Assembly: GCA_012031965.1 (NCBI GenBank)
Contig: JAAUSC010000043.1
Location: forward strand, 1-41,473
Origin: Scytonema sp. RU_4_4
GTDB lineage: Bacteria > Cyanobacteriota > Cyanobacteriia > Cyanobacteriales > Nostocaceae
DNA: 41,473 bases
Direction: 5' to 3'
The translations under genes and the position numbers were made by a program. The notes under the pieces were generated by a model. It made no database searches. It was not told the origin of the DNA and saw nothing but the letters and a program-made list of their open reading frames with translations. Shown one piece after another: positions 1,768-41,473 of this stretch. How positions within the stretch are numbered: the first letter of the stretch is position 1; each line of letters begins with the position of its first letter.

Positions 1768-4527
1768 ATGATTGCCAGCAAGCAGTGTCGTCGTATAGTT
1801 GTTTTCATTCTTTCAGTCTTGTTTGGACTCTTGTCCTCACTGAGTCTTCCAGCTTTGTCTCATACAAGCGGTGTAGGAGTGAAGGGTCAGAATCTAGAAT
1901 ATGCCCGTAGTGTACGCTACGCTAACAAACTTCAGAATTCTTCTATTCGTGCGCTACAACTGGCACAGGAAGGACAACAACGTTACAATGCTGGGAAATT
2001 TGACGAAGCTGCAAAGCTTTGGCAAGAAGCAGCTGAGGTTTATAAGCGTGTAGGCGATCGCGAAGGGATGACCAAAAGCCTCATCAACCAATCCCAAGCT
2101 TTGCAAGATTTAGGGTTGTATCCCAAAGCTTGCAAGACCTTACTCCAAGCTTTTGCCATTGACAACCCAATCTGTAACCAACAAGAGGTTGATAATTTTC
2201 TTAGTACTCTTTCTCAAAAACGAGATTCTGTTTCGTTGACTCAAGCGATTGGTTGGCATAGTCTCGGTGAAGTCCTGCGAAGACAGGGATTGTTGGTACA
2301 GTCCAAAAAAGTCTTGCAGTTGAGTTCATCAGTGCTAGAGAAATCACCACAGTTCAGTGCTGTTTTGCTGAGTTTAGGAAACACCGAACGCGCTTTAGGA
2401 AACCAAATAAGAGACCGTTGGGACTATGAGGTGGTCACTGCAATGATAGAGCGCAAATCTGTGGAAGCAGCTAGAGCCCCTTATCAAGAAGCTTTCAATA
2501 ACTATATTAAAGCGGCAGCGGTGACATCAGCTCCATCAATTCCTAAAATTCAAGCACAACTCAATCACTTCAAACTATTACTAGAGATTCAAAAATGGTG
2601 GGAGGAACAGACAAATCGACGTATTGCTTCTTGGTCTAGGTTTGGTGAAGATGAATTGCTCCAACGGGCAAAGGATTTTTTGTCCCAGTTAGAGTTAAAG
2701 CTGAACAAAGATGCACAAGCTTTGCAAAGTCAAATTGAATCTAACTTTGCGACTCTTTCCCCCAGTCGCGCAGCAATCTACGCCCAAGTTCACTTTGCTC
2801 AAAGTTTAATGCACAGCAAACAGACAAACAAGGTTGAATCTCATTTGAACGCAGCGCTGCAACAGGCTCAGAGCTTAAAAGACAAGCGAGCAGAAACCTA
2901 CGCTCTGGGTTATCTTGGCAAACTGTACCAGCAACAGGGACACCTGAATCGAGCAATTGAACTGACTCGGCAAGCTCTGTTGTTAGCTCAAGAACAAAAT
3001 ATTACTAGAGATGGACGTGAAATTACTTATCTGTGGCAATCTCAGTTAGGGGGTTTACTCAGAGAACAGGGAGATCAAAAAGGAGCGATCGCAGCTTATA
3101 GCGCTGCATATAATACTCTTCAGTCTCTCCGTAGTGATTTAAATGCGAACAATCGAGATGTCCAGTTTGACTTTCTCCAAGAGGTCAAACCTGTCTATCT
3201 AGAATTAGTGGACTTACTTTTAAAATCAAATTTGAGTGTCGATGAACTCAATTCTCTCGTCATATTGAATCCTGGCATGACTCAGGAAAAAGTTGAAGCG
3301 AACAAGCCTAAAAACCGTTTAGAATTTGCTCGAAGAGTCCTAGAGTCTCTGCAGCTAGCAGAACTAGATAACTTTTTTCGAGACCCCTGCTCACAGGAAA
3401 TGAATGCCACAATGCAGATTGATGATATCGACCCTCAAGCAGCCGTTATCTATCCCATTATTTTGAAAGACCGCTTAGCAGTTATCCTTTCCTTATCTGG
3501 AAAACCTCTCCAAGAAATACAAATTCCCACCAGTGAGGAGAAAGTTAATAATATTCTAGAGCAGCTTTATGACCGCTTAGATAATGTCACTGTAAGTAAC
3601 TCAGCTCGCAATATCATATCCACTTTTAATCCAAATCCACAAGAATTAAAAGAAAATATCCAGACGCTTTTACCGATTTTAAGACAGCTTTATAACTGGT
3701 TAATTCAACCTTTTGAAACAGAATTAGAGAACAACAAAATTAGAAATTTAGTCTTTGTGCTTAATGGTCGATTGCAAAGAGTACCGATGGCTGCCCTTTA
3801 TAATGGTCAACAATATCTGATTGAGAAATATGGCGTTGCTCTGGTTCCCAGTCTACAACTTATAGACCCTAAACTATTGAAGCGGCAAAACCTGAAAATT
3901 TTAGCTGCTGGAGTGAGTGAGCAAATAAAAGTACAAGAAGAAATTTTTCCTGCACTAGCTAACGTACCCAAGGAATTAGACGAAATCCAAAAAGCCTTCC
4001 CTGCTTCTCAAAAGCTCCTCAATCAGGAATTTACCGCAAAAACGATCCAAAATCAGCTCAAGTCCAATTTCCCTATTGTCCACTTAGCAACTCATGGATT
4101 GTTCAGTTCTAATCCGCAAAAGAATTTTATTATTACTGGAGATGGTAAAAGTATCACTATTAATGAGTTGAGTACTTTATTGAGAGAAGCACCAAAAAGC
4201 TTGGAACTCCTCGTGCTAAGTGCTTGTGAAACCGCTACTGGTGATGAACGTGCTGTTTTAGGTTTGGCGGGAACAGCTTTGCGTTCTGGCGCACGTAGTA
4301 CCCTTGCCACTCTCTGGCCCGTGGGAGATGCTTCCACGGCTGAAGTGATGGGTAGATTCTACCAAGAGTTAAAAAAACCAGGAAAGAAAAAGTTAGATGC
4401 TCTGCGAACTTCTCAACTGTCACTGATAGAATCTCTTAAGAGCAAACCAATCTTCAATGAACTTAGAGGTTTGCCTCCTCATCCTTATTACTGGGCGTCT
4501 TACGTTTTGGTAGGAAATTGGCAGTAG
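1768..4527 (+). CDS. Secreted TPR-CHAT domain protease-like protein
   Basis: The open frame extends back to 1672, but the ATG at 1768 is preferred because it begins a typical signal peptide: positively charged MIASKQCRR, then a hydrophobic stretch and an AlaLeuSer region. Residues of about 50-450 are helical and TPR-like (NAGKFDEAAKLWQEAAEVY, then further repeats). The C-terminal 300 residues are a CHAT domain, a caspase/separase-type cysteine protease fold. Its predicted catalytic His is in the ATHG motif (codon 4093) and its Cys in SACETA (codon 4225). CHAT proteins of this shape often sit beside TpsB/TpsA genes in cyanobacteria, so a role in processing or regulating the exported partner is plausible but inferred. 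It lies immediately downstream of the TpsB gene, probably in one transcript. About 919 aa from this start. Confidence 0.85.
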   Translation: MIASKQCRRIVVFILSVLFGLLSSLSLPALSHTSGVGVKGQNLEYARSVRYANKLQNSSIRALQLAQEGQQRYNAGKFDEAAKLWQEAAEVYKRVGDREGMTKSLINQSQALQDLGLYPKACKTLLQAFAIDNPICNQQEVDNFLSTLSQKRDSVSLTQAIGWHSLGEVLRRQGLLVQSKKVLQLSSSVLEKSPQFSAVLLSLGNTERALGNQIRDRWDYEVVTAMIERKSVEAARAPYQEAFNNYIKAAAVTSAPSIPKIQAQLNHFKLLLEIQKWWEEQTNRRIASWSRFGEDELLQRAKDFLSQLELKLNKDAQALQSQIESNFATLSPSRAAIYAQVHFAQSLMHSKQTNKVESHLNAALQQAQSLKDKRAETYALGYLGKLYQQQGHLNRAIELTRQALLLAQEQNITRDGREITYLWQSQLGGLLREQGDQKGAIAAYSAAYNTLQSLRSDLNANNRDVQFDFLQEVKPVYLELVDLLLKSNLSVDELNSLVILNPGMTQEKVEANKPKNRLEFARRVLESLQLAELDNFFRDPCSQEMNATMQIDDIDPQAAVIYPIILKDRLAVILSLSGKPLQEIQIPTSEEKVNNILEQLYDRLDNVTVSNSARNIISTFNPNPQELKENIQTLLPILRQLYNWLIQPFETELENNKIRNLVFVLNGRLQRVPMAALYNGQQYLIEKYGVALVPSLQLIDPKLLKRQNLKILAAGVSEQIKVQEEIFPALANVPKELDEIQKAFPASQKLLNQEFTAKTIQNQLKSNFPIVHLATHGLFSSNPQKNFIITGDGKSITINELSTLLREAPKSLELLVLSACETATGDERAVLGLAGTALRSGARSTLATLWPVGDASTAEVMGRFYQELKKPGKKKLDALRTSQLSLIESLKSKPIFNELRGLPPHPYYWASYVLVGNWQ

Positions 4528-5432: not shown

Positions 5433-6494
5433 ATGGTCAATTTAGATTCAGAGGATTTGAGCCAATTAATTACTCTCCTAAAAGATCTACCAGAGTTAAG
5501 GAATGAACGTTTACGTTTACAATTTCTTGAGTTAGCTGGGTTAAACTCAATTTCATCTCGGATAGATCTTTCAGGCGCAACTCAAACAACAATCTATGAG
5601 ATTATCAGCTTCTTATCAAGATATGGGCGTTGGACTTATGATAACGAGGCATTGGGGCTATTTTTGAACACGGTGAAAGGGTATGTGGGAGTTCAGCAGC
5701 AGGAATTTTTGGATCTCCTCCTGAAAAAGTACTCAATGATGACACCTATTGCGGCAGCTCCAGACATTGATCAATGGAAAGGAAACGAAATTACAGGAAA
5801 TGTTTTAGAGAAAATTATTGGGGAGAATACTTTACGCCCAGTTGCATTTCTAAAAAAGGGATTAGAAGTAGCACAGGCAGTTTCTTACGTCAGAGTTCGG
5901 ACTACTCAAAAATGGTGGTCAGGCACAGGTTTTCTAGTAGCCCATGACCTACTACTTACAAACAACCACGTTTTGCCCGACCCAGATTTACTAGAAGATA
6001 CTATATTTTGCTTTAACTACGAGGAAGATTTTCAAGGTCAAGCTCAAACAATAGAAGAGTACCATGCAAAGTTTAAAGGTATTTTTTATACTAATCCACA
6101 TTTAGATTATACGTTAATCCAGTTAGAAGGAGCACCTGGGCGAACATGGGGATACATATCGCTGCAACCTAAAAGTGTAAATAATGGTGATCGAGTTAAT
6201 ATTATTCAACATCCATTAGGTCAACCAAAGCAAGTATCTCTTCAGAACAATTTTGTACAATACGTAAATAGCGATATCGTGCAATACATAACTTCGACTT
6301 TGGAAGGTTCTTCTGGTTCTCCAGTTTTAAATGACGATTGGGAAGCAATAGCTTTACATCGTGCGGGTGGTGACATTCCTGAACCTGACACGCAGCGACA
6401 TTATTTTAGAAATGAAGGTGTATTGATTAATAGAATACTTGCTGATTTACCACCACATTTTAGAGATTTAGTCGATTCGACGGTTAATCGTTAG
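5433..6494 (+). CDS. EAD-like domain plus trypsin-like serine protease
   Basis: 353 aa, no signal peptide, so probably cytoplasmic. Residues about 1-95 form a small all-helical domain resembling the effector-associated domains (EADs), which act as adaptors in bacterial conflict systems. Residues about 145-340 are a trypsin-like protease with a readable triad: His179 (TNNHV), Asp225 (LDYT) and Ser296 (GSSGSP). An AAAGGTG ribosome-binding site lies 8 bases before the ATG. The next gene starts 39 bp downstream and has a similar N-terminal domain, so the two probably act together. In known EAD systems such proteases are effectors recruited through like-to-like EAD contacts; that role is inferred. 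EAD assignment is by overall pattern, not profile search. Confidence 0.82.
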   Translation: MVNLDSEDLSQLITLLKDLPELRNERLRLQFLELAGLNSISSRIDLSGATQTTIYEIISFLSRYGRWTYDNEALGLFLNTVKGYVGVQQQEFLDLLLKKYSMMTPIAAAPDIDQWKGNEITGNVLEKIIGENTLRPVAFLKKGLEVAQAVSYVRVRTTQKWWSGTGFLVAHDLLLTNNHVLPDPDLLEDTIFCFNYEEDFQGQAQTIEEYHAKFKGIFYTNPHLDYTLIQLEGAPGRTWGYISLQPKSVNNGDRVNIIQHPLGQPKQVSLQNNFVQYVNSDIVQYITSTLEGSSGSPVLNDDWEAIALHRAGGDIPEPDTQRHYFRNEGVLINRILADLPPHFRDLVDSTVNR

Positions 6495-6533
6495 CTTGAG
6501 ATATAATCAGGCTTCCAAGTGAGGTAAACATTT

Positions 6534-7849
6534 ATGCTTATTGAGGATAGATTGGTACAATTTTGTTGCAAAATTCCACATATCCCAACAGTTCGAGATA
6601 GATTAATTCTAGGGTATTCAGAGCCTGAACTTGTTAATCTAATTAATTGGGAAGGAAGTAATCTCGCAGTTTTCAGAGAATTGATAACTTATTTGGCTTC
6701 TAAAGGATCTTCAAATCTAATTTCATTTCTTCAACGTTTAGAGGGCACTGAGATGCTTGGACTGGAAGATAAAATCTTCCTTAGGGAAATTATTGCAAAT
6801 GTTAAATCCTTGCCCAAAAAACATTGGAACAGAGAATTTCCAAATGCATCAGCTTCAACGGCATCCTCACTTCTAACCCGAAGAGAAATACTTTCAAGTC
6901 TTCTTGTAGGTCTTGGCATTGGTGCAATGGAACAAGTTTTCAGCCTATTTTCTCCAAGTAAACGAGAGAATTTCTTACTGCGATGGAATCAGTTTATTGA
7001 TCCTGAACCTGCTGAGTATTTCAATGCCGATAACTTGATGCTACTTTTTGGATCTGAACCCTCAAAATGCGGAATAATTCCTGGAATAGTAATAAGCATT
7101 TAGTTGCTCAAGGTAAGTTTCGCGCAAGCAAATATGTTCAGCTTTCTTTTGATAATTCTTGCGCTGCATTGAAAGGGCTTTTAGGAGTCAGTCATACTGA
7201 ACCAGTAGTCCCAACAGATGCAAGATTAGAAGCCCATAAATTTCAAAACTTGCTAATTCTTGGTGGTCCAGTAGCAAGCCCTGAAACAAGGCTACTTTGT
7301 GGTTATCATGAGATTTCTACATTAACAAGCCCGGATAAACTTCTTCCTGAAAAAGAGAAATCTTCGATATTGCCTTATCATTTCTACTGTGGCAATCAAA
7401 ATGGTTGGGGTTACTGGGATACAGAAGAGCGCAAGGCTAGACGATGGCTGGATGATGGTACTGAAAAAATGTTGCCTTTATATGGAATTGTCGATTCCAC
7501 TAAATCTACTATTTTGGAGCCTCCAATCAACGGTGAACATCTTGCAGGCGACATGCTTATAGTCACACGTGTACCCAATCTTGAAGATGATGATGGCTCA
7601 TCCACAATAGTTGGTGGAATGCATGGATATTCTATTGAGGTCTTTTTCAAAGACTTAAATCAAAATCTAAGAACTTTTAACGAAGTGTTTCGAGCTAAAA
7701 ATTTTGATTATTTTCAGGCAATTCTACCAGTTAAGATTTCAGAAAATCATGAGGTAACTATCGATTGGTTAGGGCAAGGTAATTGGGAGCCAAATATCGT
7801 TAAAATTGACCGTGAGGCATATCTCGCTTCGTTGGCTCAACGTGTATGA
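6534..7849 (+). pseudogene. EAD-like protein with a GGPVAS/HGYS-type C-terminal domain, split by an apparent frameshift
   Basis: Two open frames form one gene. The first, 6534-7103, gives 189 aa: an EAD-like helical domain (residues 1-90), then an Arg-Arg plus hydrophobic segment (TRREILSSLLVGLGIGAM), which could be a membrane helix or Tat-like linker. The second frame carries the rest to 7849. Adding one A to the A-run at 7064-7067 joins them without a gap (about 438 aa). The C-terminal half has the conserved-looking blocks LLILGGPVASPETR, DMLIVTRVPN and TIVGGMHGYSIE. I recognise these as belonging to a recurrent but poorly characterised domain found behind adaptor domains; I cannot name its activity. 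Operonic with the EAD-trypsin gene. Either a decaying gene or a base-calling error. Confidence 0.65.
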
Positions 7850-9196: not shown

Positions 9197-9742
9197 TGCA
9201 CAATCCTCGCTTGTTCCTCATCAAAAACAATTAAGCAGATTTGTATCCGATTGAGGATTAATATCATGTCCGCTTAAATGCTTGTCATTGCGAACGTAGC
9301 GATAGCGGAGTGAAGCAATCTCCAACCCTTGCGATTGCTTCGCTACACTTCGTTGCGCTCGCAATGACATATCACAAGTAATTTGCCGGACATGATATAA
9401 CTGACCAAAGCGTTCTGAAAATAAACTTTCATAAACTCGCTGGGGAATTGCCAGATAAAGTAAGCGTTCTGATTCTAATTCTAAAAGTACAGTGCGATAG
9501 ATATCATATTGTCCCACTGCCTCCTGAAGGTCACGTATCGGCGAAAGGCTGAGAAAACTCTTAATTTCAACTGCAATTTTTTGAGAATCTTTTTCAGCGG
9601 CTATCGTATCACGTTCTGCACCGAGATCCACATACAGATTTCGACCCCCGTAAGCTAAATATAAAGGGTCATCAGTAATTGTCCAGCCATCCGCTATCAG
9701 TGCTTGCACAACTACATCATGATATACATCCCTCGCAGGCAT
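9184..9742 (-). pseudogene. xisH: XisH (fdxN element excision controlling factor), disrupted near its 3' end by a MITE
   Basis: XisH proteins have a PD-(D/E)xK nuclease-like core and are about 138 aa. Here residues 1-115 are intact (MPARDVYHDVVVQALI, DLGAER, KIAVEIKSFL), then the frame enters the MITE at 9262-9397 and picks up a nonsense tail. The original end is still present beyond the element: removing 139 bases (136-bp element plus one TAA copy) gives FGQLILNRIQICLIVF and then DEEQARIVQWIN, the expected XisH C-terminus, for a 139-aa product. Its restored stop overlaps the xisI start (ATGGATAAACTAG). Both members of this pair have thus been hit independently. Confidence 0.9.
9262..9397. 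mobile_element. 136-bp MITE (copy A of a TAA-targeting family) inside xisH
   Basis: The ends are TATCATGTCCG and CGGACATGATA, 11 bp perfectly inverted. TAA is duplicated on both sides (9259-9261 and 9398-9400). The interior carries the GTCATTGCGA...GAAGCAATC hairpin common in cyanobacterial intergenic repeats. The insertion is datable relative to xisH because the interrupted gene can be rebuilt exactly. Copy B lies at 32457-32605. Confidence 0.9.
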
Positions 9743-9853
9743 TCGTTTGTGAAGGTTCTTAAGTTTCTAGAATACAACTTGAATGTAGCTAATATCACGG
9801 AATATGCAGGATGTGAATCAAGCAATACGCCCAACACACCCCGCTACTAAATC

Positions 9854-33589: not shown

Positions 33590-35200
33590 ATGCTTATGAA
33601 TGTCTCCTCAACAAAGAAGCAACGTAAATATTTGATTGCTATTGGATCACCTAGTTGCACAGAAATGCGTCTACCTAGATTAGATCGTGTTGAAACTGAT
33701 ATTCAACGAGTTGAAAACTTATTAATTGACGACAAACAGGGCTACGAAAGGGTGTTGGCAGACCAGATATATATCGGTGCAACATCTAACAAAATTAAAG
33801 ATGCATTAACATCTTGGTTTACTAGTTCAGAACGTCGTAATTCTGACTGCGTAATTATCTATTATGCAGGACATGGAGGTGAAAACAAAGAGCAGAACTC
33901 TCATTACCTATATACTGTTGAATCAACTGAATCAAATTTCTCAAATACGACGATTAAGACTAGCGATTTGGTTCAATGTTTATTTCCAGGGAATAACAAT
34001 TCGCCTGAAAATATCTTACTGATACTTGATGTATGTTATGCCGGTGAAGGAGCAAAAAATGCTTTAGTTTCCAGTTTCAATGAATTCAGAAATGCTACCG
34101 AAAACAAATGTTTTTACGTTATTGCTTCGGCTGACTCCAAGACAGAGGCTGGAGATGGTGATTTTGTAGATGCGCTTGAAAAAGTGATGAAACATTCCGA
34201 GTGGATGTCCACATTCAACGGTGAATTTTTGAACCCAGGTGACTTGGTAATACGTATCAACAAATGTTTAGAGGTCAAGGTAAGTCAAAAAGCAGAATGG
34301 TCTTGTTTCGGAAATTCAAAAGAGATAACTTTCTTCCGTAATCCTCATTTTTTAAGTCAAAATAATTTGGAAATTGATGAACATAACCTGAAGAAAGACC
34401 TCACGAAAACAAAGTCTACTCATCAAACAGTAGCAGACCTTTTATGGTTATTGGATTACAGCGAACAAGAACAAGTCTTTAAAAAAGTGATGCAAGATGG
34501 TAAAGAAAGAGCTTTTTTAGTTCAGACAAACGTAGAGAAAATTCAAAATTGGTTGGTGCGACGTTTGGCAGGATGTGTACCGGATTTTGAGCAGGCGAAA
34601 AAATTTACAATTCGGATTAGTTATTCTATACGAAGTGATTTTAATAATTTTTGGCAAGCATTTAAGCAGAAAAGAGAAGATAATCTCAAACAAGAAACGT
34701 TAATTCAAGATTTGGCTAAGTTGTGTCAAACAAAATCTGTAATTATTGCGATTTATGGTCTTAGCTCTTTAGATCAGGCGAAAGTGAAGGAGTTTTATGA
34801 TTTCTGGTCAAATTTAGTAACCGAGGTTCAATCAGCTACACCACGTTCTTTTCGCTCGCGCCTTGTTCTACTTTTAGCGGAAAAAAATAGTAGCACTGTG
34901 TTGGATAAATTGGATGTATTTAAGTTTATACAACCACCTGAAATTAATGAAACTCAATATTCTATTTCACTGACACCTTTAGACAGGATTTCACAGGATG
35001 ATGTCAAAAATTGGTTGGCTCAAGACAATGTATATTCCTTGCTTGAGCAGACAGAAAATGAAATACAATCAATTGTTGATAATGATATTCCCACTTGGAA
35101 AGAAGAACCTTTAGATGTACTGGAAGAAATTTGTTATACATTTTTTCAATTAGAAAAGGGTATTGCAGCAATCGAACCTTATTGGAATTTAGCAGGATGA
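33590..35200 (+). CDS. Caspase-family protease fused to an iSTAND-like domain
   Basis: 536 aa. Residues 1-260 are a caspase/metacaspase p20-like domain with catalytic His95 (IIYYAGHGG) and Cys149 (LILDVCYAGEG). Residues about 280-535 resemble the inactive STAND (iSTAND) domain: LLWLLDYSEQEQVFKKVM, then AFLVQTNVEKIQNWLVRRLA in place of a real Walker A loop, and FTIRISYSIRSDFNNFW. This was recognised by pattern, not a search. The architecture suggests a caspase activated through assembly of its inactive NTPase-like domain, with nearby MoxR and vWA proteins as the switch. The stop overlaps the MoxR start by 4 bases (ATGA). Likely outcome of activation: cell suicide or dormancy. That is inference. 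Confidence 0.82.
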   Translation: MLMNVSSTKKQRKYLIAIGSPSCTEMRLPRLDRVETDIQRVENLLIDDKQGYERVLADQIYIGATSNKIKDALTSWFTSSERRNSDCVIIYYAGHGGENKEQNSHYLYTVESTESNFSNTTIKTSDLVQCLFPGNNNSPENILLILDVCYAGEGAKNALVSSFNEFRNATENKCFYVIASADSKTEAGDGDFVDALEKVMKHSEWMSTFNGEFLNPGDLVIRINKCLEVKVSQKAEWSCFGNSKEITFFRNPHFLSQNNLEIDEHNLKKDLTKTKSTHQTVADLLWLLDYSEQEQVFKKVMQDGKERAFLVQTNVEKIQNWLVRRLAGCVPDFEQAKKFTIRISYSIRSDFNNFWQAFKQKREDNLKQETLIQDLAKLCQTKSVIIAIYGLSSLDQAKVKEFYDFWSNLVTEVQSATPRSFRSRLVLLLAEKNSSTVLDKLDVFKFIQPPEINETQYSISLTPLDRISQDDVKNWLAQDNVYSLLEQTENEIQSIVDNDIPTWKEEPLDVLEEICYTFFQLEKGIAAIEPYWNLAG

Positions 35201-36246
35201 GTAAAGAACAAGCGCCAACCCAGAAATTACTGCAATATACGGGAGAGTTTCAACCTCCGCAAGCAGGAGTTAAGGACTTGAACCAGCGAGTGTATTATCC
35301 ATATATATCGAGTGAAGATTTAAAAGAGGCAGTTAATTTAGCCATTGCACTAGAGCGACCATTACTTTTAGAAGGCGAACCTGGCTGTGGTAAAACTCGC
35401 CTAGCTGGAGCAGTTGCCTATGAGTTTACGCAAAAGTATCTGCAAGACCAGAATAATAAAGAAGAACAAAAGTGGTGGGATTATTATATTTGGAATATTA
35501 AATCGACAACTCGCGCCCGTGATGGACTTTACAGCTATGATGTTGTTGCGAGATTACGGGATGCTCAATTAATGGGATCGGGTCCGCAACAATTAAAAGA
35601 GTTTTTGGAAGACAGAGAGATTCAAGACTTAAAAAATCGGTTGAAAGAGAAGAAAAATTATCGAGATTTTGGAGCTTTAGGTAAGGCATTACAAGAACAT
35701 CCTCACCGTCCCATTTTGTTGATTGATGAAATTGACAAAGCTGATGGCGATTTCGCTAATGATTTACTGCTTGAGTTAGAAGAACTGTGTTTTGAAGTGC
35801 CGGAAACTGGAGAGTCATTTCCTACACCTGAGCATAAGCCGATTATTTTTATTACCAGTAATCGTGAAAAACCTTTACCAGAACCTTTCCTTCGTCGCTG
35901 TCTTTACTTCTTTGTAGATTTCCCTAATAAAGAGCAATTGCGGAAAATTATCAATCAACGCTTTAGTGAAAGGGTGAGAGATAAACAAGAACTAGTTGAA
36001 AAAGCTATAGAACGTTTTGATGAGATTCGCAAGCGGCTAGAAAATGTCCCAGGAAGTAGACCACCGGGAACGAGTGAATTTATAGAATTTCTTACTGCCC
36101 TCTTAAATAAACAAGATGTTAAAAAAGCATTAGAAGATTTAGAAAAGTTATCCGATAAATTGCCCTTACTAGGAACCCTCCTCAAGACAAAACAGGATCA
36201 GGAGTTGTATGTGAAAAGTCAGACAAAAAAGTCAGATAAAGCTTAG
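35197..36246 (+). CDS. MoxR-family AAA+ ATPase
   Basis: 349 aa from the ATG at 35197; an earlier start is open but lies inside the caspase gene. Walker A is GEPGCGKT (residues 60-67), Walker B ILLIDEIDKAD (about 172-182), sensor-1 IIFITSNREKPLPEPFLRRC. MoxR ATPases remodel partners that carry vWA domains. The next gene encodes such a partner. The stop codon TAG (36244-36246) forms the first three bases of the target duplication of the MITE that follows. Before that insertion the next ATG was 11 bases away, a tight operon. Confidence 0.9.
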   Translation: MSKEQAPTQKLLQYTGEFQPPQAGVKDLNQRVYYPYISSEDLKEAVNLAIALERPLLLEGEPGCGKTRLAGAVAYEFTQKYLQDQNNKEEQKWWDYYIWNIKSTTRARDGLYSYDVVARLRDAQLMGSGPQQLKEFLEDREIQDLKNRLKEKKNYRDFGALGKALQEHPHRPILLIDEIDKADGDFANDLLLELEELCFEVPETGESFPTPEHKPIIFITSNREKPLPEPFLRRCLYFFVDFPNKEQLRKIINQRFSERVRDKQELVEKAIERFDEIRKRLENVPGSRPPGTSEFIEFLTALLNKQDVKKALEDLEKLSDKLPLLGTLLKTKQDQELYVKSQTKKSDKA

Positions 36247-36251
36247 ACTTG

Positions 36252-36351
36252 GGGAGCATCCCAATTTTGCAAAAACATGTTTGTCATTGCGCTAACGCAA
36301 TGACAATTAATCATCTGAGTTTGATATAACTTACACATTTGGGATGCTCCC
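36252..36351. mobile_element. 100-bp MITE with 8-bp target duplication between the MoxR and vWA genes
   Basis: Ends GGGAGCATCCCAA and TTGGGATGCTCCC. TAGACTTG is duplicated at 36244-36251 and 36352-36359. The interior has a GTCATTGCG/CGCAATGAC hairpin. The insertion left the MoxR stop codon intact and placed a TTG in frame with the next gene; that TTG is not a credible start. Confidence 0.9.
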
Positions 36352-36365
36352 TAGACTTGAGCGTT

Positions 36366-37495
36366 ATGAACAGTTCTCAGTCCGTCTTACTCGATTCGTT
36401 ATTACTAGATTTGTTCCAAGAGTTGCGAAAAGCTGGAATGGCTTTAACACTGGAACAGTATGATTTATTACGGCAAGCAATTGCTCAAGGGTACGGATTA
36501 GGCGGATGGCAAGATATCAAGCGAGTCTGTCGGTTATTGTGGGTCAAATCCCGCGCTGACTACGATGGCAATATTTTTGACCGCACTTTTGAGCGCTATA
36601 TCCAACAGCATCGGGATAAAATGCCTGTGGAACCTGATGAACCAGTTCCAGAACCAGCACCAAAAACTCCACCGCCAAAACCACCATCAAATCTCCCCCA
36701 AATTCCACCCAGAAAAAGAAGTCCTTCAACTCAGAAACCGGGTGAAGTACAAGTTCCGGTTGCTGTTCAAAGTAAACAAGTCTCTACAAGATTTGAGGAT
36801 GCCAAGAATAAATTTCGTGTCCCTCCTACTGATTTTCCCATTCAATTGTCAGATGTTCAGGTGAGTTGGCGCTTACTGCGACAAGCAAAGCAGGTTGGGT
36901 GGGACTATGAATTAGATATCGAAGCCACCCTTTACCAGATTGAACGCGAAGGTATTTTTACTGATGTGGTCATGCGTCCGGTACGGGTGCGACGGACTGA
37001 ACTTTTATTATTAATAGATGATAGTCCGGCTATGATCCCATTTTTCCTGCTCTTGCGCCTTTTATCCAAGCAGTTGAAGAAGCTCGCATTACCCCCGCCC
37101 GGATATATCGATTTACCAGCTATCCCGACGAATATCTTTATCATTGGAATCGTCCGGCTCTTGCACAACCCCTAACTGACATCTTGCCAAAATTGCATCG
37201 TCAGCGCACAGTTGTCTTAATTTTGAGTGATGCTGGAGCTGCAACAGCCACTTACAGCCAAGAGCGAATTGAGGGAATATCCAAATTTTTGACAGCATTA
37301 TCACCTTGTATTCGCCAATTAATCTGGCTTAATCCTCTACCGCCTCAACGCTGGGAGCAAACTTCAGCCTGGACAATTGACGCGGTACTCAATGGCAAAA
37401 TGTTAACTTATGAACCTGCGAGTCTACAAACAGCAGCACGGGCAATTCCCCAGGAGAATATGATTAAGACATGGCAAATGTATTCCCACCTGTAA
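36366..37495 (+). pseudogene. SAV_2336-type vWA-like protein, apparent frameshift
   Basis: Begins at ATG 36366 (MNSSQSVLLDSLLLDLFQEL). Helical N-terminal SAV_2336-like region (1-90), a Pro-rich linker (PPPKPPSNLPQIPPRKRSPS), then FRVPPTDFPIQLSDVQVSWR and a vWA-like core opening with ELLLLIDDSPAM, a partly degenerate MIDAS (DxSxA). The frame breaks at the T-run 37041-37045. Adding one T continues smoothly: PALAPFIQAVEEARITPARI, then PDEYLYHWN, TVVLILSDAGAATATYSQER and LIWLNPLPPQRWEQTSAWTI, to a stop at 37495. The next gene starts inside its last 25 bases. It should be the MoxR partner, transmitting a signal from the FGE-like protein to the effectors. Confidence 0.75.
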
Positions 37496-39099
37496 CCCAG
37501 CCTAACAATAAAGAGAATTTGAAAGACGATTTGACAACTCGCCGCATTCGGGTTTTTGAAGGACGCTACGGAACGAATGCGCTCTTATTGGCTTACCATG
37601 CTGCTTTTCCCCTTACCCTCACCTCAGATTTACTCTACTGTTTGCGGGAGAATTTTGTACCTGATGTCCCTTGGTATGCTGTTGCTGATGTATTGCTATC
37701 AGGATTATGCCAACCCGCAGGCTATGACTTGTATGAAATGGAAGCTAAAACCAGAGATGGCTTGCTGCGTCGTTTGTGTAAGCAGTTTGGGGAACAGCGA
37801 CTCAAGCAACTGGCGAATTTTATGTGTGAGTATATTCGCAATCGCTTGCAGGTTGAGAAGAATGACCGTGCTTTGGTCTTTGGACAACGCCCAGACTGGA
37901 CAGCATTAGCATACTTGAGTTCAGATCAACAAGAACTAATTAACGCTATCAAACAAGAGTTGCAGCAAGTACTAGCCTCCACAGATGCTAAAGAACGTAT
38001 CAGATGGGCAGTTTTAGTAGAAAGTTATGCTGATCTGTTATCGGAAAAAGGTTTTGAGCCATTATTGTTGCAATGGTCACAGCAGATAATTGATGGCGAA
38101 CCCATACAGGATGAAGAGGAGAAAGAAATTGCCGCAACGATGGGAGTTTCTTTGCAAACTTTTGAGTTTGACGTGGCAGCTATTATCCCAGACGATGAAG
38201 CTGGAGAACAGTTGCAAACTTTTGAGTTTGACACAGTAACAGTTAATGCTCGTGGAAAAGTCATTCATAAAGAACGAAACCAAGCATTTTATTTTCCAGA
38301 GTTTCTCGGTGAAGCCGTAGGAAAACCATCAGCACTGCAAATAGAGATGGTAGCTATAAGAGGAGGAACTTTTGAAATGGGATCGCCACCAGATGAGCCA
38401 CAACGTTATGACGATGAGAGTCCCCAGCATACAGTAACCGTGCAGCCGTTTTTCTTGGCTAAGTATCCAGTCACTCAAGCGCAGTGGCGATTTGTGGCGC
38501 AGTTACCCCAGGTGAACCAGGAACTCGATCCCGATCCGTCTAGATTTAAAGGAGATGATCGCCCTGTCGAAAGAGTTTCTTGGTACGATGCAGTTGAATT
38601 TTGCTTGCGCCTATCTCAATATACAGGCAGACCCTACAGCCTCCCTAGTGAAGCGGAATGGGAATATGCAGCTCGTGCTGGAACAACAACACCATTTCAT
38701 TTTGGCAAAACAATTACGTCGGAATTAGCCAATTATGATGCTGGCTATACTTATGGTCGGGGACCAAAAGGAATTTATCGAGAGGAAACAACAGAAGTAG
38801 GAAGCTTTGAAATAGCTAATGCTTTTGGGTTATATGATATGCACGGAAACGTAGACGAATGGTGTCTGGATGATTGGCACGATAACTATGAAGATGCGCC
38901 AACAGATGGCAGTCTTTGGTTTGATAATAATGATAATCTTTCCCAAAAACAAGGAGTTGCCGTACTGCGGGGCGGTTCCTGGATCAGCGATCCTATAGGC
39001 TGCCGTTCCGCGTCTCGCAACTTCAACCCTTGGCGCGACGACATCAACGGCTGTTTTGGTTTTCGTGTCGCCTGTGGGGTTGGGAGAACTCTTAAGTAG
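37471..39099 (+). CDS. FGE-fold (C-type-lectin-like) protein with helical N-terminal region; candidate DGR variable protein 1
   Basis: 542 aa. Residues 1-205 are a helical region (RYGTNALLLAYHAAFPLTLT, then DLLYCLRENFVPDVPWYAVA) that often travels with vWA/SAV_2336 proteins. Two copies of LQTFEFD follow around 230-255. Residues about 285-542 are an FGE-sulfatase fold: FEMGSPPDEPQ, FLAKYPVTQAQWR, VSWYDAVEFC, LPSEAEWEYAARAG, LYDMHGNVDEWC, VLRGGSWISD, FGFRVAC. Only the second of the two catalytic cysteines of true formylglycine-generating enzymes remains (WISDPIGC), so it is probably a binding domain. Overlaps the vWA gene by 25 bases; an added A at 37476-37478 would fuse the two. The C-terminal 46 codons look like a DGR variable region. 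Confidence 0.85.
   Translation: MANVFPPVTQPNNKENLKDDLTTRRIRVFEGRYGTNALLLAYHAAFPLTLTSDLLYCLRENFVPDVPWYAVADVLLSGLCQPAGYDLYEMEAKTRDGLLRRLCKQFGEQRLKQLANFMCEYIRNRLQVEKNDRALVFGQRPDWTALAYLSSDQQELINAIKQELQQVLASTDAKERIRWAVLVESYADLLSEKGFEPLLLQWSQQIIDGEPIQDEEEKEIAATMGVSLQTFEFDVAAIIPDDEAGEQLQTFEFDTVTVNARGKVIHKERNQAFYFPEFLGEAVGKPSALQIEMVAIRGGTFEMGSPPDEPQRYDDESPQHTVTVQPFFLAKYPVTQAQWRFVAQLPQVNQELDPDPSRFKGDDRPVERVSWYDAVEFCLRLSQYTGRPYSLPSEAEWEYAARAGTTTPFHFGKTITSELANYDAGYTYGRGPKGIYREETTEVGSFEIANAFGLYDMHGNVDEWCLDDWHDNYEDAPTDGSLWFDNNDNLSQKQGVAVLRGGSWISDPIGCRSASRNFNPWRDDINGCFGFRVACGVGRTLK
38962..39099 (+). other. Candidate DGR variable region VR1
   Basis: Begins in the invariant block CTGCGGGGCGGTTCCTGG and runs to the stop. 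Compared codon by codon with 40059-40202, 27 bases differ; 20 of these have A in one copy and only 4 are third positions. Invariant blocks TGCCGTTCCGCG, GGTTTTCGTGT and GCCTGTGGGGTT interrupt the variable codons. The variable codons are mostly NNC or NNT, as expected from AAC/AAT codons in a template. Confidence 0.7.
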
Positions 39100-39368
39100 C
39101 CCTTTATACTTTAACTCTTTTGCCCTTTACTCTTGTTTTTTACCCTTTGTTAGCGTATGAAAGCGGAGCGTTATAAAATTTTTTTTTCAAATCAAGTCTG
39201 GAAACAGAATAAACATTAATTGAGCGAGAAAGTTAATACCAAGTTGCAGTCAAACATGGTATTCCGTCATTGCGACTGGAACGGAGTGGAAGGAAGCAAT
39301 CTCATCAACCCTGAACTACTACAACAGAACGCAAATTGGTATAAGCAAAAGGAATCAAATACAAATAA
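39100..39368. other. Intergenic gap between the two FGE-like genes
   Basis: Begins with CCCTTTATACTTTA, which also follows the stop of the second FGE-like gene. It then contains the MITE at 39237-39341. No gene. Confidence 0.6.
39237..39341. mobile_element. 105-bp MITE (copy C, related TAA-targeting element)
   Basis: Ends TACCAAGTTGC and GCAAATTGGTA (one mismatch when paired), flanked by TAA at 39234-39236 and 39342-39344. The core GTCATTGCGACTGG...GAAGCAATC resembles copies A and B although the terminal repeats differ. Confidence 0.8.
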
Positions 39369-40202
39369 ATGGTAAAAATACTTACTAAGCGACAGACAGC
39401 GCAATGTTTTATCGAAGACTTGGGCAATGGAATGACCCTAGAGATGGTGCTGCTGCGGCGTGGCAGTTTTATCATGGGCGCTCCAGAAACAGAAGAAGGT
39501 CGCAGCGACAGGGAACGCCCCCAACACGAAGTAACAATCCCTACTTTTTTTCTGAGTAAGTATCCGATTACTCAAGCACAGTGGAGGGCAGTAGCAGCAC
39601 TACCCCAAGTCAATAGAGAGCTAAACCCTGATTCATCGTACTTTAAAGGAGACAACCGTCCTGTAGAGTACGTTTCTTGGTACGATGCCGTGGGGTTTTG
39701 CCAGCGCCTCACCTCCCATACAAAAAGACAGTATCGCCTCCCCAGTGAAGCAGAATGGGAATATGCTTGTCGTGCCGGAACAACAACACCATTTCATTTT
39801 GGCGAAACAATTACGTCGGAATTAGCCAATTATAATGGAAACTACACTTATGGTGCTGGTATCAAAGGAACGTATCGAGAACAAACAACAGAAGTAGGAA
39901 GCTTTGGCGTAGCTAACGCCTTTGGGTTATACGATATGCATGGGAACGTTTGGGAGTGGTGTCTGGATGATTGGCACGATAACTATGAAGGAGCACCAAC
40001 AGATGGTAGTCCTTGGTTTGATGATAATGATAATTTTTATAAAAAACAAAGAAGAGGCTTACTGCGGGGCGGTTCCTGGCTCAGCCGTCCTAAGTACTGC
40101 CGTTCCGCGTCCCGCTACTACAACGATAGGGCGGAGCGCGGCATCATCGACGACCTTATTGGTTTTCGTGTAGCCTGTGGGGTTGAGAGGTCTCTTCAGT
40201 AG
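39369..40202 (+). CDS. Stand-alone FGE-fold (C-type-lectin-like) protein; candidate DGR variable protein 2
   Basis: 277 aa, a single FGE-sulfatase domain without the helical region of its neighbour. Motifs: MEMVLLRRG-type start (LEMVLLRRGSFIMGAPETEE), FFLSKYPITQAQWR, VSWYDAVGFC, LPSEAEWEYACRAG, LYDMHGNVWEWC, LLRGGSWLSR, IGFRVAC. The first catalytic Cys of formylglycine-generating enzymes is Ser (WLSRPKYC), so oxidation of sulfatases is unlikely. It is closely related to the preceding gene at DNA level, except for the C-terminal segment, where change is concentrated at non-silent positions. It probably arose by duplication and may supply a second, separately diversified ligand-binding surface. 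Confidence 0.87.
   Translation: MVKILTKRQTAQCFIEDLGNGMTLEMVLLRRGSFIMGAPETEEGRSDRERPQHEVTIPTFFLSKYPITQAQWRAVAALPQVNRELNPDSSYFKGDNRPVEYVSWYDAVGFCQRLTSHTKRQYRLPSEAEWEYACRAGTTTPFHFGETITSELANYNGNYTYGAGIKGTYREQTTEVGSFGVANAFGLYDMHGNVWEWCLDDWHDNYEGAPTDGSPWFDDNDNFYKKQRRGLLRGGSWLSRPKYCRSASRYYNDRAERGIIDDLIGFRVACGVERSLQ
40059..40202 (+). other. Candidate DGR variable region VR2
   Basis: Counterpart of VR1, with two extra codons (GCG GAG at about 40130-40135). Starts TTACTGCGGGGCGGTTCC and keeps the same invariant blocks; ends GTTGAGAGG...CAGTAG. See the VR1 entry for the substitution pattern. Confidence 0.7.
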
Positions 40203-40262
40203 CCCTTTATACTTTAGCTTTTTTGTCCTTTATTCTTTTTCTTTTTTCCTTTTTTTCCACCG

Positions 40263-40499
40263 TCAGGCGGCTCGATTTTTTAGCCAAATATGAAGATTTA
40301 TAATGACTTGTTCCAATTCTTCATTCAACGATCCAAACCGGATGCGCAACAAGTTTTCTACCACTTGGCGCTGCCCTTGTTGGACTCCTTCTTGTAGTGT
40401 AGCTTCCCGCCATTCTAAATAAGCTTGTGATAAGTTCATAATTACCTCTTGGTCATCTTCGGTAAGATTTTCCTGTTCTATTACCGTCAATTCGTGTGG
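40263..40499 (-). pseudogene. C-terminal remnant of a DUF4351/Rpn-type nuclease-transposase protein
   Basis: The minus-strand frame (open from 40553) encodes NLSQAYLEWREATLQEGVQQ, then GQRQVVENLLRIRFGSLNEE, the characteristic DUF4351 tail of cyanobacterial Rpn/PD-(D/E)xK proteins. The nuclease domain that should precede it is missing. Its first codons come from the adjacent repeat at 40524-40635. Confidence 0.78.
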
Positions 40500-40523
40500 A
40501 GTGCTACCCCTACCCCTGATAAG

Positions 40524-40635
40524 CTCGTTTCCAGCCTGAGGCTGGAAATGCAAGCAACGAGAGGCTCTGCCTCAACTCAAATACCGGAGGCGGAGCCTCT
40601 TAGTAGTGCATTCCCTGGCTCAGCCAGGGAACGAG
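40524..40635. repeat. 112-bp four-hairpin palindromic element
   Basis: Ends CTCGTTTCC and GGGAACGAG. Inner hairpins: CCAGCCTGAGGCTGG, GAGGCTCTGCCTC, a GGCGGAGCC-centred arm and CCCTGGCTCAGCCAGGG. It adjoins the DUF4351 remnant. A further palindrome (GGAGGGTTTCCCTCC, about 40682-40696) follows. Confidence 0.75.
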
Positions 40636-40984
40636 AAAAGAGTCCAGCCTGTTCCTGTGATGCTGGTGAGTCAGCGCTGCGGGAGGGTTTCCCTCCGCAG
40701 GCGACTGCGAACCCGAAGGGTGACAGTATCCGAAAATCAACTGAGTTGGGTAGCTTGGTAGGTATCAAAACCGAACAGTTGCTCAACTCTATAAACAAAT
40801 TGTAGGCGATCGCCCGTATAGCCCCAAGGAATTTCCCTTCTGGAAACCCCTTCACCCGTGCGATCGCAATCTGCACCTGATCGAAACCGATTTTAATTGT
40901 TGTGACGAGTACACGCATTGATTTGCACATATTTTGCACAGCAAATCAGCGAATCTAGGGTATACATCACTTACCCATAAAGCT

Positions 40985-41473
40985 ATGCTCCACAACGTTC
41001 AATCATCTCTCCGGAAACGGCAGCATTCTCTTATTCGTAGACTCGCAGATACTATTGAGGCAATTTGGCAAATATATTTGGACTTATCACCCTACAACAT
41101 ACCAGAAGATTTGGGCTATATCGAAAACCATCTGGAAGGCGAAAGGCTGGTTATTGAAAATTACTGCTATCAGGCTCCTCAATTTCGCAAGCTCCATCTA
41201 GAACTAGCTCAGGTAGGCAACGGTTTGGATATTCTCCACTGTGTGATGTTTCCCCGCACAGAGTATGCTTTGCCGATGTTTGGTACTGATCTTGTGGGGA
41301 GTCGGGGGCAAATCGGTGCGGCGATCGCCGACTTATCTCCTATAAATCCAGATAGAACACTCCCAGCCACCTATCAAGCCGCCCTCTGTGCTCTTCCAGT
41401 TGTGTCAGTTTTCCCAATTGCGCGACGTTGACCCCTGTCGGGGGAGCATTTTTCGTCTGGAGTTTTGCATGTT
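40985..41473 (+). pseudogene. pcyA: Phycocyanobilin:ferredoxin oxidoreductase PcyA, 5' part, apparent frameshift, cut by window end
   Basis: From ATG 40985 the frame encodes the PcyA N-terminal half: [20 protein letters not shown], then [40 protein letters not shown] and [20 protein letters not shown]. PcyA reduces biliverdin IXalpha to phycocyanobilin for phycobiliproteins. After the codons for LPVV the frame becomes nonsense and stops at 41431. Reading from 41406 in the next frame gives [10 protein letters not shown] and an IF-containing stretch like the PcyA continuation, so one extra base near 41402-41405 explains the break. Even then the PWGEIFSEFC region is altered (PCRGSIFRLEFC). A functional copy would be expected elsewhere if this one is broken. 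Confidence 0.8.

What the first reader, a model, noticed from the sequence alone, without database searches (positions are those of the whole stretch)
38962..40202. Two FGE-fold proteins end in DGR-like hypervariable segments, with no DGR in the window
Aligned codon by codon, VR1 (38962-39099) and VR2 (40059-40202) differ at 27 bases. Twenty have adenine in one copy, and 23 are at first or second codon positions. The changes lie between exactly conserved blocks (CTGCGGGGCGGTTCCTGG, TGCCGTTCCGCG, GGTTTTCGTGT). Upstream, about 98 bases of the same domains (from 38641 and 39739) have only about eight differences, half of them silent. All sites fit a template with A at the variable positions (for example AAC giving ATC/CTC, AAT giving GAT/CGT). 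FGE-fold C-type-lectin domains are established DGR targets. If right, an off-site reverse transcriptase and template diversify both.
Basis: partly seen in the sequence, partly recalled or inferred. Interest (0 to 1): 0.9.

Follow-up and report, generated by a model that had tools for sequence, protein, structure and literature searches.

The report
Decayed hypermutation locus with frozen variants
Two neighbouring genes in a filamentous cyanobacterium carry the marks of a known system that scrambles a short stretch of a protein on purpose, but the copying machinery and its template are missing here and a broken piece of the system's RNA remains as a scar, while relatives still have the intact version.

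Summary
In detail: VR1 and VR2 are DGR variable regions. Against a template repeat (TR) in another genome of the family (G135), VR2 differs at 15 of 31 adenines and 0 of 76 other sites; VR1 at 16 of 30 and 1 of 71, with a 6-nt gap. The off-site reading is only partly right. The draft genome (96.6% complete) has one DGR-type reverse transcriptase, on another contig, but neither TR found in this genome fits (12-17 non-A mismatches plus gaps), and the first invariant block occurs nowhere else. Instead, window 40638-40669 and 40719-40802 match the structured RNA that follows the TR in relatives' DGRs. Best reading: a decayed DGR beside a caspase/AAA/vWA conflict-type locus, its variable regions frozen. 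Degenerate DGR loci are already published. Less expected: 27 of 86 RT-less RNA tails examined sit behind a target gene and a TR with no RT fragment in the fetched stretch (one has an RT 603 nt downstream), and 15 of 25 comparable ones show at most one non-adenine mismatch. That suggests RT acting in trans, or recent RT loss.

The parts
33590..35200 (+). caspase-like peptidase with inactive STAND domain (probable effector of the neighbouring conflict locus)
   Evidence: Pfam iSTAND 72 bits, Peptidase_C14 41 bits, both over cut-off
35095..36246 (+). AAA ATPase, MoxR-like by position (the name MoxR is inferred)
   Evidence: Pfam AAA_5 37.6 bits over cut-off
36339..37495 (+). vWA-type gene read in two frames (36339-37175 and a second frame ending at 37495): frameshift or draft error
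   Evidence: six-frame reading; Pfam VWA_CoxE 25.0-25.5 bits, just under its cut-off of 26.4
37471..39099 (+). DGR target gene 1: N-terminal region of unknown function plus C-terminal FGE/C-type-lectin domain
   Evidence: FGE-sulfatase E 3.3e-52
38965..39065 (+). VR1 core
   Evidence: 16/30 A and 1/71 non-A differences from the G135 TR with a 6-nt gap; 18/31 and 3/70 from the G173 TR without gap (coordinates)
39369..40202 (+). DGR target gene 2: FGE/C-type-lectin domain only
   Evidence: FGE-sulfatase E 7.3e-54
40062..40168 (+). VR2 core
   Evidence: 15/31 A and 0/76 non-A differences from the G135 TR (coordinates)
40266..40553 (-). DUF4351-like fragment lying where avd, RT and TR are expected
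   Evidence: Pfam DUF4351 20.3 bits, under its cut-off of 25
40524..40635 (+). 112-nt dispersed repeat directly 5' of the RNA remnant
   Evidence: 26 matches in the own genome at E <= 1e-10, self included
40638..40802 (+). remnant of the RNA that follows the TR in relatives' DGRs, first part missing and split by an insertion at about 40670-40718
   Evidence: blastn pieces 40638-40669 and 40719-40802; covariance model built without the window: 88.1 bits at 40595-40794, 75.0 bits at 40630-40794 with filters off

Best explanation
The locus is a degenerate cyanobacterial DGR. Shown: VR1 and VR2 differ from a TR type that exists today in relatives almost only at its adenines, and part of the structured RNA that follows the TR in those DGRs survives, broken, 435 bp behind the second target gene. 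Inferred: an error-prone RT once copied a local TR RNA, and the cDNA replaced the 3' ends of two C-type-lectin target genes. Avd, RT and TR were later lost, with a dispersed repeat and a DUF4351-like fragment now in their place, so both VRs are frozen. The targets are probably the ligand-sensing part of a caspase / AAA / vWA conflict locus. The 6-nt length difference means that the two VRs were last written from two versions of the TR, or that one changed length later.
For: Adenine-only pattern against foreign TRs. The pattern of the VR blocks hits 57 of 217 family genomes, including TRs behind DGR RTs. RNA remnant in the right place and orientation, and the tail is tied to DGRs: 63 of 74 RT hits have it directly downstream. 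Intact order target-target-avd-RT-TR-tail in Nostoc sp. UHCC 0926 plasmid pn2. No RT or Avd remnant in the window and no fitting TR in the assembly. A copy of the same repeat lies beside the broken avd of the C182 DGR.
Against: The deletion itself is not seen: no sister strain with the intact locus at this site was found. The tail remnant could in principle have arrived apart from a full DGR. Both window VRs share a 3' block (GCCTGTGGGGTTG) that no TR held here has, so the true template is not known. The TR that fits VR2 best lies at a locus without RT in the fetched 8 kb. The genome is a 96.6% complete draft of 400 contigs.
Confidence: 0.8

Rival explanations
1. The VRs are still diversified by an off-site DGR whose template lies in an unassembled part of the genome, perhaps on a plasmid.
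For: Draft of 400 contigs, 96.6% complete. DGR RTs of this clade occur on plasmids: 6 of the 15 plasmid records with a match are cyanobacterial. VR2 shows no non-A mismatch to a foreign TR.
Against: No further copy of the first invariant block, one DGR RT only with a different TR and only a fragment of Avd. A local scar is present.
Confidence: 0.15
2. The DGR at C182, or the TR at C190, wrote VR1 and VR2.
For: RT and TRs are present in the same genome, and their own VRs fit them (14/30 A, 0/68 others; 13/26, 0/72; over a longer stretch C190 has 1 of 91 non-A mismatches).
Against: 12-17 non-A mismatches and 3-15 gap positions for VR1/VR2.
Confidence: 0.02
3. Ordinary paralogue divergence or positive selection in a ligand-binding loop, without retrohoming.
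For: The two copies diverge elsewhere too (177 differences in 212 codons before the VR).
Against: Change is confined to template adenines (VR2 0/76 at other sites), third positions are spared in the VR only, and DGRs with the same blocks exist in relatives.
Confidence: 0.01
4. The two target genes were moved here already written, together with a piece of DGR tail, so no complete DGR ever stood at this site.
For: Closest matches among plasmids show that such targets travel on plasmids, and dispersal of targets is described for cyanobacteria.
Against: Order and orientation of target, target and tail are those of intact loci.
Confidence: 0.12

Closest known systems
Cyanobacterial DGRs with C-type-lectin (FGE-like) targets, Vallota-Eastman et al. 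2020 (PMC7517822; Results parts 1 and 2 read); intact example here: Nostoc sp. UHCC 0926 plasmid pn2, NZ_CP117770.1
   Same: FGE/C-type-lectin targets with 3' VR, two targets in a row, same VR/TR blocks, same RNA tail. The paper also reports remote targets and one paralogue with remnant TR-VR homology and no RT nearby.
   Different: RT, avd and TR are absent in the window; the tail is broken.
Degenerate DGR loci of Thiohalocapsa PB-PSB1, Dore et al. 2024 (PMC10907252; Results parts 1 and 2 and the ternary-system section read)
   Same: Targets kept while RT or TR is replaced by repeat arrays; MoxR/vWA conflict neighbourhood.
   Different: There some degenerate loci match a TR elsewhere in the genome and still vary; here no fitting TR was found and no population data exist.
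Nostoc punctiforme DGR, Npun_F4885-F4892 (PMC12691664; section 10 read)
   Same: CHAT, MoxR, vWA, target 1, target 2 in the same order (from the text, not aligned here).
   Different: RT, Avd and TR are present, and low adenine mutation was detected by resequencing.

Membership tests
Diversity-generating retroelement (DGR) | VR differs from its TR at template adenines only | tested here: met
   Against foreign TRs: VR2 15/31 A, 0/76 others; VR1 16/30, 1/71 with gap
Diversity-generating retroelement (DGR) | Template repeat in the same genome | tested here: not met
   Two TRs found, neither fits; block search finds only the VRs; draft genome
Diversity-generating retroelement (DGR) | DGR-type reverse transcriptase at the locus | tested here: not met
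   None in the window; one on another contig, C182
Diversity-generating retroelement (DGR) | Accessory protein Avd | tested here: not met
   Not in the window; fragment only at C182
Diversity-generating retroelement (DGR) | C-type-lectin-fold target with VR at its 3' end | tested here: met
   FGE-sulfatase domain in both targets; that this family has the lectin fold is recalled and from PMC7517822
Diversity-generating retroelement (DGR) | Conserved RNA behind the TR (feature of the relatives' DGRs, defined here) | tested here: inconclusive
   Broken remnant, 88.1 bits, first part missing
Diversity-generating retroelement (DGR) | Variation of the VR among cells or strains | not testable with these tools
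   No reads and no second strain
MoxR-vWA(-VMAP) ternary conflict system | MoxR-like AAA, vWA protein and effector protein in a row | tested here: inconclusive
   Caspase-iSTAND and AAA_5 over cut-off, vWA just under cut-off and frameshifted; VMAP domain not tested

The most novel reading that the evidence does not exclude
The window is a decayed case within a large set of loci in this cyanobacterial family that keep target, TR and TR RNA but no RT. Compact target-TR-RNA cassettes without an RT are a recurrent form that is rewritten in trans by an RT that comes and goes, perhaps on plasmids. In three such cassettes from two genera the TR is 117/117 identical while the VRs differ from each other at 17-21 of 30 adenine sites and at 0 of 87 others, and two of the three genomes have no DGR-type RT.
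Probability: 0.45. Interest if true: 0.68.

Novelty: new member of a known kind. Interest (0 to 1): 0.48.

Why it matters
It shows how a hypermutation system can be lost from a bacterial sensor locus while its last variants stay behind. It also gives a handle: the RNA behind the template marks DGRs and DGR scars even where the RT is gone. Among 150 listed matches of that RNA in one family, 87 have no RT within 3 kb upstream, which makes it directly testable whether one RT serves many templates in trans.

Tried and rejected
Own-genome templates C182 and C190 were rejected for VR1 and VR2. Rfam on 37000-41473 gave one chance match below its threshold. That the tail might be an unrelated common RNA was tested by co-location (63 of 74 RTs) and rejected. 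A first tree of 114 tails split RT-bearing from RT-less loci sharply; adding 27 RT-bearing tails blurred this, and what remains is a 50-tail clade with SH-aLRT only 81 that holds 2 RT-bearing tails and 1 with an RT downstream, so no single origin is claimed. The first motif search of RT-less loci was too strict and was replaced. Same-genus genomes: most matches to target 2 end before the VR, so no orthologous VR was compared; the same-genus stretches L220-L223 were fetched but not analysed. A tblastn of two DGR RTs on the window gave two short hits (E 0.02 and 0.3) to residues upstream of the RT's methionine, taken as dispersed repeat and not RT. The literature search returned no relevant paper.

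Full report
What is there. The window is a whole contig (C202) of a 7.33 Mb draft in 400 contigs, 96.6% complete. A genome of the same genus group (G025) has a contig of 914,713 bases, the length of a contig of Scytonema tolypothrichoides VB-61278, so the host is probably a Scytonema-like filamentous cyanobacterium; the strain itself is unnamed. ORFs 37471-39099 and 39369-40202 end in FGE-sulfatase domains.

Templates. A pattern from the VR blocks hits 57 of 217 family genomes, own included, and in several fetched loci there is an adenine-rich copy directly behind a DGR RT. From the loci held I collected 59 distinct adenine-rich TR-like cores. The best for VR2 is the TR at G135:C106: 15 of 31 adenine sites differ, 0 of 76 others. 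For VR1 the same TR gives 16 of 30 and 1 of 71 with a 6-nt gap, and the TR of G173 gives 18 of 31 and 3 of 70 without a gap. The genome's own TRs fail: C182 has 14 (VR1) and 13 (VR2) non-A mismatches of 68, C190 has 17 of 72 and 12 of 69, all with gaps. As a positive control, the C182 and C190 VRs fit their neighbouring TRs at 14/30 and 13/26 adenine sites with 0/68 and 0/72 others (over a longer stretch C190 has 1 of 91). Against a neat story: the G135 TR has no RT in the fetched 8 kb, and both window VRs share a 3' block that no TR held here has.

Machinery in this genome. Of 8 RVT_1 hits, seven have a QGxxxSP-type motif and one, at C182, has VGNLTSQ with YVDD; reading this as DGR-type is recalled knowledge, backed by its TR and VR neighbours. 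A clade RT used as query finds this one only, at E <= 1e-40. Its avd is a fragment, and one of the 26 copies of the dispersed repeat lies beside it. C190 has a VR gene, a TR and the RNA tail but no RT in the fetched stretch. C257 and C11 hold further VR-like ends whose best templates are foreign, with 2 and 3 non-A mismatches and a gap each.

The scar. Behind the TR of relatives lies a conserved RNA of about 150 nt with 44 predicted pairs, 9 of them with a change on both sides among 8 sequences. BLAST places two pieces of it in the window, 40638-40669 and 40719-40802. A covariance model built without the window scores it at 88.1 bits over 40595-40794 and 75.0 bits over 40630-40794 with filters off; the first part of the model is not matched, and a 55-nt stretch splits a hairpin. 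In an intact plasmid locus the order is target, target, avd, RT, TR, tail, so the lost parts lay between 40202 and 40638, where a weak DUF4351-like fragment and the repeat now lie. Dore et al. describe the same kind of decay in Thiohalocapsa, where MITE-like arrays replaced an RT or a TR.

Neighbourhood. Upstream lie a caspase-like peptidase with an inactive STAND domain, an AAA ATPase and a vWA-type gene that needs two frames. Dore et al. propose that such targets are antigen sensors of MoxR-vWA conflict systems, and the N. punctiforme DGR has CHAT, MoxR, vWA and two targets, with adenine mutation detected. The sensor role is their hypothesis and is untested here.

RT-less remains are common. 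The tail model hits 119 of 217 family genomes, the RT query 56. Of the 150 tail matches listed (more were not), 63 have a DGR RT within 3 kb upstream on the same strand and 87 do not, 33 of these in genomes with an RT elsewhere and 54 in genomes with none at E <= 1e-40. I classified 86 of the 87 by script (the other is the window): 27 have a TR and a VR gene without RT fragment, 1 the same with RT fragments, 16 have a VR gene running straight into the tail, 5 a VR further upstream only, 10 a TR without VR found, 5 the same with RT fragments, 22 neither (the six RT-bearing control loci in that table are left out). The stretches reached at most 3.5 kb upstream and mostly 150 bp downstream, some ended at contig ends, and the motif search is crude, so 'not found' is not always 'absent'. 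In 12 loci that I read several kb further downstream there was no RT, but one of the 27 (G047, L191) has an RT 603 nt downstream of its tail. Of the 27, 25 could be compared base by base: 336 of 644 adenine sites and 88 of 2281 others differ. 15 of 25 have at most one non-A mismatch, among them 6 of the 14 in genomes without a detected DGR RT; the other 10 have 2 to 15, which speaks for decay in those. In six RT-negative genomes I listed all RVT_1 hits: G001 has none; G155, G167, G048 and G128 show none with the DGR motif; G003 has its DGR RT only as fragments beside its TR, plus one very long RT-like ORF with a GIGISQ motif that I take for another class. G128 is a VR-abuts-tail locus; the other five have TR and VR.

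Three cassettes (L188 in G047, L196 in G048, L185 in G167; two genus codes) share a TR identical at 117/117 bases, while the 600 nt before the VR differ at 4-15% and the VRs differ from each other at 17-21 of 30 adenine sites and 0 of 87 others; each VR has 1 non-A mismatch to its TR. So these VRs were rewritten after the genes had diverged, in cassettes that carry no RT. Either an RT worked in trans and was lost from two of the genomes, or it comes from something not in the assembly. DGR RTs of this clade do occur on plasmids: 15 plasmid records match, 6 of them cyanobacterial.

Literature. Searches, and passages of PMC8144416 and PMC3240598, showed no description of RT-less target-TR-RNA cassettes as a class. 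They did show remote cyanobacterial targets and degenerate loci with trans activity. Only open-licence papers are searchable, mostly seen as listings, so this is weak evidence of novelty.

Verdict. A decayed DGR: real variable regions, lost machinery, a recognisable scar; a new member of a known kind. The RT-less cassettes met on the way are the part worth pursuing.

Noticed in passing
L135 (G000:C190): VR from 3135, TR from 3518, tail 3638-3793 (script coordinates): In the same genome a target gene, a TR and the RNA tail stand together without an RT in the fetched stretch; VR and TR differ at 13 of 26 adenine sites and 0 of 72 others in the core (1 of 91 over a longer stretch).
   Followed up: partly
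L188 (G047), L196 (G048), L185 (G167): Three RT-less cassettes from two genera with an identical TR (117/117) and VRs that differ only at adenine sites (17-21 of 30, 0 of 87 others).
   Followed up: partly
L191 (G047:C1:4960656-4964457): A cassette with a DGR RT 603 nt downstream of the RNA tail, the reverse of the usual order here.
   Followed up: no
L360 (Aulosira laxa NIES-50 plasmid4), target CDS 5970-6842, tail 6800-6953; 16 loci: A target gene runs straight into the RNA tail, as if VR and TR had recombined and deleted the RT between them.
   Followed up: partly
L015 (G000:C182), about 9732-9826: The avd of the only RT-bearing DGR found in this genome is reduced to a fragment, with a copy of the same dispersed repeat nearby as in the window.
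   Followed up: partly
L016 (G000:C257) from 8207 and L224 (G000:C11): Two more VR-like gene ends whose best-fitting TRs are in other genomes (2 and 3 non-A mismatches plus a gap).
   Followed up: partly
L362 (Nostoc sp. UHCC 0926 plasmid pn2) 9372-9650: The TR and its RNA tail are annotated as a protein-coding gene (PQG02_RS36790, hypothetical protein).
   Followed up: no
36339-37495: The vWA-type gene upstream of target 1 is read in two frames: a real frameshift or a draft error.
   Followed up: no
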